Below, in pieces: positions 34,951-38,756 of a stretch of 64,000 nt of DNA. Position 1 is the first letter of the stretch. Each line of letters opens with the position of its first letter. Both the position numbers and the translations under genes were made by a program. The stretch comes from Planotetraspora mira. GTDB taxonomy: Bacteria > Actinomycetota > Actinomycetes > Streptosporangiales > Streptosporangiaceae. Where the stretch lies: NCBI RefSeq assembly GCF_016863275.1, contig NZ_BOOO01000024.1:1-64000 (forward strand). The letters run 5' to 3'. The notes below the pieces were generated by a model that worked only from the letters and a program-made list of their open reading frames with translations, ran no database searches and had not been told where the DNA came from.

Positions 34951-37008
34951 ATGAGCACCCCTGGCCGGGCAGCCCAGCGACGCAAGACGTCGCACGTTCT
35001 GGCGATCGCGCCGTTCCGCAGGCTCTGGACGGCGATGGGGGTGTGCAGCCTCGGTGACTGGCTCAACATCATCGCGCTGACCGCCCTCGCGGGTAACCTC
35101 ACCCAAGGCTCGGGCTTCCAGGCGCAGAGCCTGGCCATCGGCGGTGTCTTCGTCGCCAAGATGTTGCCCGCGATCCTGCTCGGGCCCCTCGCCGGAACCG
35201 TGGCCGACCGCTTCGACCGTCGCCTGACGATGGTCGTGGCCGACATCGTCAGATTCGGCGTGGTGTTGTCGATTCCACTGGTCGGCAATTACCAGTGGGT
35301 CCTCATCGCCGCGTTCCTGGTGGAATGCGTGAACCTCTTCTGGGTGCCCGCGAAGGACGCGACCGTCCCCAACCTCGTGCCCAAGGAGAGGCTGGAGGAG
35401 GCCAATCAGTTCAACCTCCTGGTCACGTATGGCACCGCTCCCGTCGCCGCGGCCCTGTTCGCCGTCGGATCGGCGTTGACGAGCATGGTGACGGCCGCGT
35501 TCCCCGCGTCCGGCGTGAAGCCCACCGATCTGGCGCTCGGCATCAACGCCGTCGCGTACCTGGTCTCGGCCGTCCTGATCTTCACGTTGCGCAGCATCCC
35601 CAAGGACCACACCCGCCAGGCCTCCACCCTCTCGGTGCTCGGGCAGATCGTGGACGGCTGGCGCTTCGTCGGCGGCAACCGGGTCGTCAAGGGTCTGATC
35701 ATCGGAATGCTCGGCGCGTTCGCCGCCGGAGGCGCCGTCGTGGGCGTCGGGAAGGCCTATGTCAGCGCCCTCCACGGGGGTGACGCGGGATACGGCGCGG
35801 TCTTCTGCGCGGTGTTCCTCGGCATGGGGCTCGGGATGTTCTTCGGGCTGCGCCTGCTCGGCGGGCTCTCCCGGCGGCGCATGTTCGGGCTGTCCATCAT
35901 CTTGGCCGGGCTGACCCTCGCGGCCATCGCGGTGATCCACGATCTCGTGATCGTCGTCATGCTCACCGTGCTGCTCGGAGCCTGCGCCGGCATCGCCTGG
36001 ATCATCGGCTACACGATGATCGGGCTGGAGGTCGAGGACGCCCTTCGCGGCCGGACCTTCTCCTTCCTGCAGTCACTGGCCCGCGTGGTGCTGCTGCTGG
36101 TCGTGGCCGTGGCCTCCGGGCTGGCCGCCGTCTTCGGCAGCCATCTCCTCGCCGTCGGCGGGATCAGTTACCAGTTCGACGGCTCCAACGTGGTGCTCCT
36201 GCTGGCCGCCCTGCTTGCCGTGGTCGTCGGCCTGCTCGCGTTCCGGCACATGGACGACCGCCGCGGCATCCCGATCGGCGTCGACCTGATGGCGGCGCTG
36301 CGGGGCGAGAAGTTCGTCCCCGAGGCCGAGGAGCAGCCCCGCGGGTTCTTCGTGGCGTTCGAGGGCGGCGAGGGATCGGGCAAGACCACTCAGTCGCGCC
36401 TGCTCGCCATCTGGCTGCGCGACCAGGGGTTCGACGTCGTCCAGACCCGGGAGCCCGGCTCGACCAAGGTCGGCATGCGCCTGCGCGCCATCCTGCTCGA
36501 CGCCACTCACCAGGGCCTGTCCGCCAGGTCCGAGACCTTGCTGTACGCCGCCGACCGGGCCGAGCACGTCGAGAAGGTCATCCGGCCCGCCCTGAAGCGC
36601 GGGTCCACGGTCGTCACGGACCGTTACGTCGACTCGTCGCTGGCCTACCAGGGTGCGGGCCGGGCTCTCGAGCCTGAGGAAGTGGCCCAGATCAACTCAT
36701 GGGCGACGGGCGGGCTGCTGCCCGACCTGACCGTCCTGATCGATGTGCCGCCGTCGGTCGGGCTGCGCCGGATGGCCTCCCCCGCGGACCGGATCGAGGC
36801 CGAGCCGCTGGAGTTCCACGAGCGGGTCAGGCGCGAGTTCCGGACGTTGGCCGCCGCGGCCCCGGAGCGGTATCTCGTGGTCGACGGCACGCTGCAGCAG
36901 GCCGAGGTGTCCCGCCTCATCCAGGACCGGGTTCGGGAGGTCCTTCCCGACCCGGTCCCCCACGAGGCCGAAGCCGCCACCGGCACCATCCCCGCCATCC
37001 GCGACTAA
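34951..37008 (+). CDS. tmk: MFS-like membrane domain fused to dTMP kinase
   Basis: 685 residues. Residues 1-435 form a transporter-like domain of about ten to twelve membrane helices with the MFS loop motif GTVADRFDRRLTM. Residues about 463-670 are thymidylate kinase: FEGGEGSGKTTQ P-loop (about 470-480), TREPGST, TDRYVDSSLAYQG. The kinase makes dTDP for DNA synthesis. The fusion is known from actinobacterial tmk genes; why it is membrane-bound is unclear. ATG 34951 lacks a strong RBS. Placed between topA and holB, as in Streptomyces. Confidence 0.95.
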   Translation: MSTPGRAAQRRKTSHVLAIAPFRRLWTAMGVCSLGDWLNIIALTALAGNLTQGSGFQAQSLAIGGVFVAKMLPAILLGPLAGTVADRFDRRLTMVVADIVRFGVVLSIPLVGNYQWVLIAAFLVECVNLFWVPAKDATVPNLVPKERLEEANQFNLLVTYGTAPVAAALFAVGSALTSMVTAAFPASGVKPTDLALGINAVAYLVSAVLIFTLRSIPKDHTRQASTLSVLGQIVDGWRFVGGNRVVKGLIIGMLGAFAAGGAVVGVGKAYVSALHGGDAGYGAVFCAVFLGMGLGMFFGLRLLGGLSRRRMFGLSIILAGLTLAAIAVIHDLVIVVMLTVLLGACAGIAWIIGYTMIGLEVEDALRGRTFSFLQSLARVVLLLVVAVASGLAAVFGSHLLAVGGISYQFDGSNVVLLLAALLAVVVGLLAFRHMDDRRGIPIGVDLMAALRGEKFVPEAEEQPRGFFVAFEGGEGSGKTTQSRLLAIWLRDQGFDVVQTREPGSTKVGMRLRAILLDATHQGLSARSETLLYAADRAEHVEKVIRPALKRGSTVVTDRYVDSSLAYQGAGRALEPEEVAQINSWATGGLLPDLTVLIDVPPSVGLRRMASPADRIEAEPLEFHERVRREFRTLAAAAPERYLVVDGTLQQAEVSRLIQDRVREVLPDPVPHEAEAATGTIPAIRD

Positions 37009-37059
37009 CCCCCGCCGCGACACCCCCCCTCCGCCGTGACATGCCCCACCCCCTCCGTC

Positions 37060-37523
37060 GTGATCATGCACAGGTTCGTGGATGTGCCTCGTAACCAGCG
37101 GAAACGCCGGGCGTGATCATGCACGGGTTCGTGAATATGCCGCCCGACCAGCAACGATGCCCTGCGTGATCATGCACACTTTCGGTTATATGGCCGTTGA
37201 CCTGGCCACACTCAAGTCGTGATCATGCAAGGCTTCTTGGTTGTGCTGCTTGACGTGCGCTTTCTTGCTTCGTGATCTGGCGATGAGCCGAAGCGTGTGG
37301 TGCATGATCGCGGGTGCCATCTGTGCAGGTGTGCCTGCTGTTCGACGAAAGTGTGCATGATCACGAATCGCGTTCGCCCAGTTCGGAGGCACTTCCCCCG
37401 AACTTGCGCATGATCACGCCCCGCGTTTTTGCTGGTCACGAGGCACATCCACGAACTTGTGCATGATCACGGCGGGTGTGGGGGCAGGTCATGTGGCACT
37501 TCGCCGAAGGTGTGCATGATCAC
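37060..37523. repeat. 53-bp-period inverted array of GTGATCATGCAC motifs
   Basis: The 563-bp tmk-holB gap holds no gene but this array. Forward 12-mers start at 37060, 37113, 37166, 37219 and, decayed to GTGATC, 37272. Reverse 12-mers (GTGCATGATCAC) start at 37300, 37353, 37406, 37459 and 37512. Every step is exactly 53 bp, and each forward copy mirrors a reverse copy around 37291.5, so the region is a 464-bp register-perfect imperfect palindrome. Outside the 12-mer the 41-bp remainders are diverged but share TTCG three bases on, then A-x-GTGCC and GACC. The segment 37060-37124 matches the reverse complement of 37406-37470 at most positions. I know no named family for it. Confidence 0.92.
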
Positions 37524-37571
37524 GCGGGGAAGGGTGGGGGCGGGGCAAGATCAGGGGGGTAGGTTGATGGG

Positions 37572-38756
37572 GTGAGTGTCTTCGGCGATCTGGTGGGGCA
37601 GGAGCGGGCCGTCATCGTGCTCCAGAAGGCCGCCGCGGCCGCGGCCGACGCCCTCGCCGGGGGACGTGGCGCCGGCATGACCCACGCCTGGTTGTTCACC
37701 GGCCCTCCGGGATCCGGGCGTTCCAACGCCGCCCGGGCCTTCGCCGCCGCTCTTCTCTGCCCCGACCAGGGCTGTGGACACTGTGACGCCTGCCACCAGG
37801 TCGATGTCGGCTCCCATCCCGACGTGACCTGGGTCCGCCCTGAAGGGCTCTCCTACAGTGCCAAGCAGACGCGGGATCTCGTGCTCAAGGGGGCCGGCGC
37901 CCCGACGCTCGGCCGCTGGCGGATCGTGCTCTTCGAGGACGCCGACCGTGCGACGGAGGCCGCGGCCAACGCGCTGCTGAAGGCCATCGAGGAGCCGCCG
38001 CCGAGGACGGTCTGGCTGCTGTGCGCCCCGTCACCCGACGACATGATCATCACGATCCGGTCCCGCTGCCGCGTCGTGACCCTGAGCACCCCCTCGACCG
38101 AGGCCGTCGCCCACGTGTTGATGACCAGGGACGACGTCCCGCCCGACACGGCGCTGTTCGCCGCGCGCGCGGCGCAGGGGCACATCGGCCGGGCCCGGCG
38201 GCTCGCGCTCGACGAGGAGGTACGGCGGCGCAGGGAGGACGTCCTCTCGATTCCCAAGTCGTTGTCCGGAGTGGGTGACTGCATCACCGCCGCCGAGCGG
38301 CTGGTGAAGACCTCGACCGCGGACGCGGACGCGGCGACGACGGCTCTGAACGAGGTCGAGACGACCGAGTTGCGCCAGGTGTACGGCGAGGGCTCGTCCG
38401 GCAAGGGGCTCAACAAGGGCCTTGTCCGGGGAGGGGCCGGAGCGTTGAAAGAGCTCGAGACCATGCAGAAGTCACGGGCCACCAGAATCAAGCGCGACTC
38501 CCTGGATCTCGCTCTGCTCGACCTCGTGGCGTTCTATCGCGACGTGCTGGCCGTCCAGTTCGGCGCGCAGGTCGAACTGGCCAACGAGGACCGGCGGCAC
38601 GAGGTGGAGACCCTGGCACGCAACTCGTCGCCCGTCGACACGCTTCGCCGTACGGACGCGATCATGTTGTGCCGCGAGCGACTGGCGGCCAATGTGAACC
38701 CGCAGATCGCCGTGGAGGCCATGACCCTGGCGCTCCGCGATCCCAATCTCGTGTGA
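37572..38756 (+). CDS. holB: DNA polymerase III subunit delta'
   Basis: 394 residues, AAA+ clamp-loader fold. Walker A-like GPPGSGRSNAARA (Lys replaced by Arg, as expected for non-ATPase delta'), a zinc module CPDQGCGHCDACHQ, and LFEDADRATEAAANALLKAIEEPP with the delta' EEPP signature. It loads the beta clamp with DnaX and HolA. GTG 37572 begins MSVFGDLVGQERAV, the usual family start. It lies right behind the 53-bp repeat array. Confidence 0.95.
   Translation: MSVFGDLVGQERAVIVLQKAAAAAADALAGGRGAGMTHAWLFTGPPGSGRSNAARAFAAALLCPDQGCGHCDACHQVDVGSHPDVTWVRPEGLSYSAKQTRDLVLKGAGAPTLGRWRIVLFEDADRATEAAANALLKAIEEPPPRTVWLLCAPSPDDMIITIRSRCRVVTLSTPSTEAVAHVLMTRDDVPPDTALFAARAAQGHIGRARRLALDEEVRRRREDVLSIPKSLSGVGDCITAAERLVKTSTADADAATTALNEVETTELRQVYGEGSSGKGLNKGLVRGGAGALKELETMQKSRATRIKRDSLDLALLDLVAFYRDVLAVQFGAQVELANEDRRHEVETLARNSSPVDTLRRTDAIMLCRERLAANVNPQIAVEAMTLALRDPNLV

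What the first reader, a model, noticed from the sequence alone, without database searches (positions are those of the whole stretch)
37060..37523. Ten-unit inverted array with exact 53-bp period between tmk and holB
The 12-mer GTGATCATGCAC recurs at 37060, 37113, 37166, 37219 (37272 decayed) and as its reverse complement at 37300, 37353, 37406, 37459 and 37512. All steps are 53 bp and both halves are mirror images around 37291.5. Between the 12-mers the units are diverged, so the 12-mer and the register seem to be kept by selection while the rest drifts. Five helical turns per unit (about 10.5 bp each) would put every 12-mer on the same DNA face, as needed for a regular protein array. A transcript would fold into one long hairpin. 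I know no named element like this.
Basis: seen in the sequence. Interest (0 to 1): 0.92.

Follow-up and report, generated by a model that had tools for sequence, protein, structure and literature searches.

The report
Inward-facing 53-bp repeat arrays between genes
The repeat between two genes is one of probably more than a hundred similar arrays scattered between the genes of this soil bacterium, all built on one nearly unchanging 11-letter DNA word that recurs, with species-specific endings, in a few distantly related actinobacteria, which suggests a so far unrecognised DNA-binding system that acts between genes.

Summary
The array is real: ten cores at 53-bp steps, mirrored about 37291.5 (six exact 12-mers, three with one mismatch, one decayed). 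It is not unique. The 11-mer GTGATCATGCA occurs 739 times in this genome (reversed control 0) and 290-1083 times in four congeners (Planotetraspora). In sampled DNA, 150 of 153 copies lie in intergenic arrays of 53-bp units, two-armed and inward-facing or single-armed. The 11-mer, followed by a genome-specific ~10 bp, also forms hairpins or arrays of other periods in a few other genera and unrelated actinobacterial families. Within the genus the ending is a dialect: CACAGGTTCG (213 copies here, 0 in P. thailandica) versus CAGAAGTTCG (1 here, 577 there), although two loci tested carry arrays in both. The core changes less than array-free intergenic DNA, the spacers faster; no base-pair covariation exists inside units; the REP transposase family is absent here. 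Best reading: binding arrays for an unidentified DNA-binding protein with two recognition parts, perhaps a barrier at gene ends, spread by an unknown route. The core resembles ArgR boxes of Streptomyces, a concrete lead. Reader protein and function are untested.

The parts
37059..37230 (+). left arm: cores at 37060, 37113, 37166, 37219, 53-bp steps
37271..37311 (.). centre: decayed + core (37272) and innermost - core (37300), mirror axis 37291.5
37300..37524 (-). right arm: five cores at 37300, 37353, 37406, 37459, 37512
37071..37078 (+). unit positions 13-20 of the first unit (CAGGTTCG), in the species-specific part of the motif
37093..37098 (+). unit positions 35-40 of the first unit (consensus GACCTG; here AACCAG), box B
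37041..37058 (+). C-rich outer flank of the left arm on the motif strand
37525..37545 (-). outer flank of the right arm, C-rich on the motif strand
34951..37008 (+). upstream ORF, MFS-like membrane region joined to thymidylate kinase (named from its translation); 3' end faces the left arm, 50 bp away
37572..38756 (+). downstream gene, DNA polymerase III delta' (holB, named from its translation); start 47 bp beyond the right arm

Best explanation
The array is one of roughly 140 (an estimate: 739 cores at about five per element) dispersed intergenic arrays of an asymmetric DNA motif made of a nearly invariant part, GTGATCATGCA, and a fast-changing dialect part of about 10 bp. Most likely mechanism: a sequence-specific DNA-binding protein with two recognition parts, one conserved and one fast-evolving, occupies the motifs as DNA, and the occupied arms form a barrier or insulator at gene ends. 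Shown: the anatomy, the 53-bp register in this genus, constraint on the core, the genome-wide dialect difference, the intergenic placement with excess at convergent gaps and deficit at divergent ones. Inferred: that a protein binds, that it has two parts, that it halts or insulates transcription. The route of spread is unknown; near-identical units were found within elements, not between them.
For: 739 copies, control 0; 1083/290/786/807 in G001-G004. Core 2 of 198 sites changed in 18 orthologous units, against 6.3% in array-free intergenic DNA (Poisson 0.0003). Dialects: the CACAGGTTCG form 213/0/39/146/199 and the CAGAAGTTCG form 1/577/1/1/1 in G000/G001/G002/G003/G004, with arrays of both dialects at two loci matched to G001 by one flank each. 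No pairing covariation in 112 units and folding equal to column-shuffled chimeras. 150 of 153 exact 11-mers in 895 kb lie in arrays; 1 of the 3 lone ones is inside a called gene. Convergent gaps: 9 of 29 elements against 53 of 390 gaps of 80 bp or more (p 0.025); divergent: 3 of 29 against 118 of 390 (p 0.02). In unrelated G232: 12 of 34 against 16 of 121 (p 0.005) and 2 of 34 against 33 of 121 (p 0.009). Two-armed elements face inward in 12 of 12 in the G232 sample and 17 of 17 in the own sample after setting aside two double readings of one arm.
Against: No binding protein was identified. Single arms in co-directional gaps do not clearly follow transcription: 14 of 23 sense (p 0.40), where a strict polar terminator predicts more. 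Inward order is not universal: mixed or outward orders in G115 L228, G076 L251, G291 L195 and G350 L202. Units were counted only if the core was still recognisable in both species and at least 45 positions aligned, which can lower the core rate. Box B changes at about the intergenic rate (8 of 108), so its constraint is unproven. Excess at convergent gaps also fits neutral tolerance of insertions there.
Confidence: 0.38

Rival explanations
1. Selfish dispersed repeats: the motif is the recognition end of an unknown transposase or recombinase, and the arrays are non-autonomous copies that grow by slippage and conversion.
For: Copy number; patchy phylogeny (hairpin in 16 of 200 family genomes, and 6 of 394 class genomes, own included in both); genome-specific inner half as in terminal inverted repeats; inward arms; an element in G350 but not at the one orthologous gap compared in G438; array at tmk-holB in G000, G003, G004 and sp. 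A-T 1434 but not in P. thailandica.
Against: Core constraint at fixed loci; no unit pair of 0.8 identity or more between elements (0 of 5929), so no sign of recent copying in the sample; 12 of 13 own elements followed have an array at the same place in G003; the Y1 transposase family is absent in 15 of 17 carriers, own included; the few genes read between arms differ.
Confidence: 0.28
2. The reader of the core is ArgR, the arginine repressor, or a relative of it: the arrays are dense ArgR-type sites that titrate it or let its hexamer bridge DNA.
For: Table 1 of PMC5839063 lists CTCTCCGTGATCATGCACCC, which holds the exact 12-mer, as the ARG box of a fragment bound by Streptomyces coelicolor ArgR in band shift. 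A model from the 36 other listed boxes gives own cores a median of 8.3 bits (known boxes mean 10.6) and G232 cores 10.8; 3 of 400 permuted cores do as well. With a one-strand model, 53 of 143 sites of 10 bits or more in 365 kb fall in array spans that cover 1.3%.
Against: The core keeps CGTG where the symmetric ARG box has GCATG, so the arrays do not drift to the best ArgR site; G350 cores score only 4.7; the dialect half is unexplained; most genomes searched lack the arrays although ArgR is widespread (recalled); the paper notes no transcription change for the SCO5864 site. No ArgR gene signature was found in the held sequences, which are only parts of genomes.
Confidence: 0.12
3. RNA element: the two-armed array is transcribed and folds as a long hairpin that ends or stabilises transcripts.
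For: The window array folds far better than shuffles (z -13.9); in G350, G438 and G232 the core sits at the foot of long stems whose upper sequence differs by genome.
Against: 12 of 29 own elements are single-armed; no covariation inside units; nested arm pairs are only somewhat more alike than non-nested ones (0.48 against 0.40, p 0.004), apparently through a few recently exchanged pairs.
Confidence: 0.09
4. Rho-dependent terminators: arms give C-rich, G-poor RNA to transcripts entering from either side.
For: Motif strand C .61 G .175 in G232 spacers and C .47 G .22 in own outer flanks, against C .34-.37 G .33-.34 in own and C .41 G .33-.35 in G232 array-free 3' flanks; inward arms.
Against: Does not explain a nearly invariant 11-mer or dialects; own unit positions 21-53 are only mildly C-rich (.36/.30); 9 of 23 single arms in co-directional gaps are antisense.
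Confidence: 0.06
5. DNA uptake or self-recognition sequence of the DUS kind.
For: A constant part plus species dialects and inverted pairs near gene ends, as described for DUS (PMC3630211, passages seen).
Against: DUS also lie within genes; here 150 of 153 copies lie in intergenic arrays. The passages seen mention no tandem arrays. Competence was not tested.
Confidence: 0.04

Closest known systems
REP / BIME repeats with RAYT (Y1) transposases
   Same: More than 100 copies, species-specific sequence, composite inverted arrangements, proposed roles in chromosome organisation and termination (PMC2817692, abstract and outline seen)
   Different: Y1 transposase family absent in 15 of 17 carriers, own included; the unit is an asymmetric motif in head-to-tail arrays with 53-bp pitch; the 11-mer is shared by unrelated families
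Stoperators of cluster A mycobacteriophages
   Same: Asymmetric intergenic sites, many per genome, bound by a monomer with two DNA-binding domains, the C-terminal one more diverse; block elongation (PMC9283540, passages seen)
   Different: Here chromosomal, in tandem and two-armed arrays; orientation of single arms with transcription not significant; no match of this array in phage records and none of the hairpin pattern in viral contigs
ARG boxes bound by ArgR (Streptomyces)
   Same: One listed box holds the exact 12-mer; array cores score as ARG-box-like in four of seven genomes sampled at a median of about 8 bits or more (PMC5839063, section 8 and passages; scores)
   Different: ARG boxes are near-palindromic and mostly near promoters; here asymmetric, arrayed and mostly at gene ends
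DNA uptake sequence dialects of Neisseriaceae
   Same: Dialects; inverted pairs linked to terminators (PMC3630211, passages seen)
   Different: Intergenic arrays, strict unit length, no tie to competence tested
MIRU minisatellites of mycobacteria
   Same: Dispersed intergenic tandem units of similar length (recalled; no sequence compared here)
   Different: Here two-armed and inward, with a nearly invariant 11-mer

Membership tests
REP/BIME | abundant intergenic repeats | tested here: met
REP/BIME | cognate RAYT (Y1) transposase gene in the genome | tested here: not met
   PF01797: none in G000; matches in 2 of 17 carriers (G114 one, G001 four partial ones) and in 5 of 23 other genomes; the search rings in 5 of 14 control genomes
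REP/BIME | unit is itself a palindrome / hairpin | tested here: not met
   own 53-bp units are asymmetric without covariation; hairpins do exist in other genomes
Stoperator | asymmetric intergenic site in many copies | tested here: met
   (the site; binding not shown)
Stoperator | orientation correlates with transcription | tested here: inconclusive
   14 of 23 single arms sense, p 0.40; two-armed elements inward
Stoperator | cognate two-domain repressor encoded | not tested
ArgR operator | match to the ARG-box model | tested here: inconclusive
   median 8.3 bits in own cores, 4.7 to 10.8 over seven genomes; 3 of 400 permuted cores reach the own median
ArgR operator | bound by ArgR of the carrier | not testable with these tools
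   needs a band shift; one S. coelicolor fragment with the 12-mer is reported bound
DNA uptake sequence | copies in coding and intergenic DNA | tested here: not met
   150 of 153 in arrays, 1 lone copy in a called gene
DNA uptake sequence | promotes uptake by a competence receptor | not testable with these tools
   needs a transformation assay
MITE of an IS | target-site duplication and shared transposase | not tested
   no systematic scan; the few genes read between arms differ
Known Rfam RNA | match above gathering score | tested here: not met
   36500-38000: one match, 19.5 bits against a gathering score of 67.7, outside the array

The most novel reading that the evidence does not exclude
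A chromosomal 'stoperator-like' system: an unknown two-domain DNA-binding protein of actinobacteria, with one conserved and one rapidly re-specifying domain, coats inward-facing motif arrays at gene ends across the genome and acts as a two-sided barrier to transcription, while its binding sites shift in concert into species dialects.
Probability: 0.2. Interest if true: 0.88.

Novelty: new variant of a known kind. Interest (0 to 1): 0.72.

Why it matters
If the best reading holds, some actinobacteria carry a genome-wide set of protein-bound, satellite-like arrays at gene ends whose binding code differs between sister species at many loci at once. That would be a directly testable case of concerted evolution of a binding site and its reader in bacteria, and a class of intergenic element that the REP transposases do not explain. 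Even under the selfish reading, a repeat family with a nearly invariant 11-mer shared by unrelated actinobacterial families and no known mobiliser is worth explaining. The resemblance to ArgR boxes gives a first protein to test.

Tried and rejected
REP/RAYT origin: PF01797 absent in own genome and in 15 of 17 carriers; but P. thailandica (G001), the genome with most copies, has four partial matches and G114 one, so it is not excluded everywhere. RNA fold within the unit: a 64-nt window looked structured (z -2.4 on the motif strand, 56 of 112 units), most likely because it held two palindromic cores; 53-nt units give z -0.4 and -0.8 on the two strands, and real 64-nt units equal column-shuffled chimeras. 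A master gene between widely spaced arms: the genes read in G232 and G438 were ordinary and different, one an IS3-type pair. Phage or plasmid carriage: 0 in viral contigs for the hairpin pattern, no match of the array in plasmids or phages. Polar terminator from single arms: not significant. Nested-arm similarity as proof of hairpin selection: not accepted, a few exchanged pairs appear to drive it; that test also included the double readings at C1:270252 and C2:7575. Word searches on the family and repeats, REP in actinobacteria, MIRU and actinomycete palindromes listed no paper on this repeat by title; only the held open-access library was searched. Samples: the contig-2 pieces of the own genome and many G232 pieces were chosen because they held cores; contigs 1, 3 and 4 were taken without choice. 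Gene calls are my own hexamer-based calls, not annotation. In one search two test strings (G350, G438) were too short for the box and their scores are void; one search replaces them.

Full report
OBSERVATION. It lies in the 563-bp gap between an MFS-Tmk ORF and holB.

A GENOME-WIDE FAMILY. The 11-mer GTGATCATGCA occurs 739 times in the own genome against 0 for the reversed control, and 1083, 290, 786 and 807 times in G001-G004; 31 of the 32 other same-family genomes of that search have 1-12 copies and G028 has 84. Equal contig lengths identify the congeners as Planotetraspora thailandica (G001), phitsanulokensis (G002), kaengkrachanensis (G003) and silvatica (G004). In 895 kb of own sequence, 150 of 153 exact copies lie in arrays. 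In 365 kb of contig 1, 62 same-strand pairs of near-matching cores are exactly 53 apart and 4 lie at other distances from 40 to 70. Of 29 own elements, 17 are two-armed and inward and 12 single-armed, after two '-+' readings were recognised as one arm read on both strands 3 bp apart. The G003, G001 and G004 stretches held give 5, 2 and 2 two-armed elements, all inward.

ANATOMY OF THE UNIT. From 112 complete units: positions 1-11 nearly invariant, 17-20 TTCG, 35-40 GACCTG, 46-47 AC, the rest variable. The strongest dependences are mostly between neighbouring positions or come from a few aberrant units (such as 9-17), not between would-be base pairs: pairing in the CAGGT/ACCTG stem equals the expectation from independent columns. 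Real units fold no better than column-shuffled chimeras. The whole two-armed array does fold as a long hairpin (z -13.9), but single-armed elements cannot.

EVOLUTION. Between own and G004 orthologous units (18 units at three loci), the core changed at 2 of 198 sites, positions 21-34 at 48 of 252 and box B at 8 of 108. Array-free intergenic DNA differs by 6.3% (13 gaps) and fourfold sites by 7.5%. So the core is constrained and the spacers differ about three times more than other intergenic DNA, through scattered changes (alignments) and probably unit exchange. Against G003 many units fall below 0.6 identity at variable positions. Close unit copies occur within elements (11 of 287 pairs at 0.8 identity or more) and not between elements (0 of 5929). 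At tmk-holB, units +1 and -2 resemble each other within each species (0.88 own, 0.90 G004) slightly more than their orthologues (0.85, 0.78).

PRESENCE AND LOSS. At tmk-holB: arrays in own, G003, G004 and sp. A-T 1434; one short palindrome in G002; none in G001. In the 75 other named loci, a scan allowing one mismatch found no array, only scattered single hits; two of these loci (L148, L158) end before the gap. Of 13 own contig-1 elements, all but C1:60117 have an array at the same place in G003. In G002, at C1:22326 the neighbouring gene is inverted between two lone cores, and at C1:27840 the site is empty.

DIALECTS. GTGATCATGCACAGGTTCG: 213, 0, 39, 146, 199 copies in G000, G001, G002, G003, G004. 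GTGATCATGCAGAAGTTCG: 1, 577, 1, 1, 1. The difference lies at unit positions 13 and 15. At the two loci compared, G001 carries full two-armed arrays in its own dialect; each locus is matched by one flank only. At tmk-holB the outermost units of sp. A-T 1434 read CACAGGTTCC; arrays of G085, another genus of the family, read similarly and have 53-bp steps in 9 of 11 cases read.

OTHER CARRIERS. Hairpins with the 11-mer occur in 16 of 200 family genomes and 6 of 394 class genomes; head-to-tail pairs in 11 of 21 chosen genomes and 2 of 396 phylum genomes; own is included. Each genome has its own continuation after the 11-mer: ATCCCGCCACC in G232, CGTTCGCCCC in G350, CGCCAGCGCA in G438 of the same genus as G350, a CATCCTGGG-like form in G291. 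The one orthologous gap compared between G350 and G438 has an element only in G350. Orders are mixed in G115 L228, G076 L251, G291 L195 and G350 L202.

CONTEXT. Excess at convergent gaps and deficit at divergent gaps hold in own genome and G232. The outermost motif often supplies the TGA stop of the gene that ends there: 7 of 29 facing arms in own, 6 of 32 in G232 (distances -5 and -4). Gene ends facing an arm lie close (median 15 and 22 bp), gene starts further (61 and 70 bp). The motif strand is C-rich relative to array-free 3' flanks. Single arms in co-directional gaps are sense in 14 of 23 (p 0.40), so polarity with transcription is not shown.

ARGR LEAD. A model from the other 36 boxes scores own cores at a median 8.3 bits, G232 10.8, P. 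thailandica 8.4, G291 7.7, G438 7.5, G028 7.0 and G350 4.7, against a mean of 10.6 for known boxes; 3 of 400 permuted cores reach the own median. This is a lead, not proof: the arrays keep CGTG where a symmetric ARG box has GCATG.

READING. A constrained asymmetric core, a second half that differs genome-wide between sister species, DNA-level rather than base-pair dependence inside units, and placement between genes point to a DNA-binding protein with two recognition parts. The closest known logic is the stoperator repressor, a monomer with two DNA-binding domains, the second more diverse (PMC9283540, passages). REP/BIME membership fails on the transposase in own genome (PMC2817692, abstract), DUS membership on placement (PMC3630211, passages). 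A barrier at gene ends is the most likely role but inferred. A selfish route of spread remains a serious rival and may be true together with a later function.

Noticed in passing
L281 (G002:C1:556500-565300), own equivalent C1:22326: In P. phitsanulokensis the small gene beside the array is inverted in place between two lone cores, as if arms had recombined.
   Followed up: partly
G028, e.g. L055, L056: A conserved 49-bp hairpin GTGATCATGCAGTTTT..AAAACTGCATGATCAC, often repeated 220-500 bp apart, in some loci among minisatellite-like DNA.
   Followed up: partly
L271:11105-12873 (G232): An IS3-type orfA/orfB pair sits between the ++ and -- arms.
   Followed up: no
34951-37008: Thymidylate kinase is the C-terminal part of one long ORF with an MFS-like membrane region.
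   Followed up: no
L228 (G115), L251 (G076): Cores in mixed order and many spacings (31-70), unlike the inward arrays elsewhere.
   Followed up: no
own C1:22284-22345: Cores 21 bp apart at the outer edge of one array, a compressed spacing seen only there in the contig-1 sample.
   Followed up: no
PMC5839063 Table 1: A Streptomyces coelicolor ArgR-bound fragment (SCO5864) holds the exact 12-mer of this array.
   Followed up: partly
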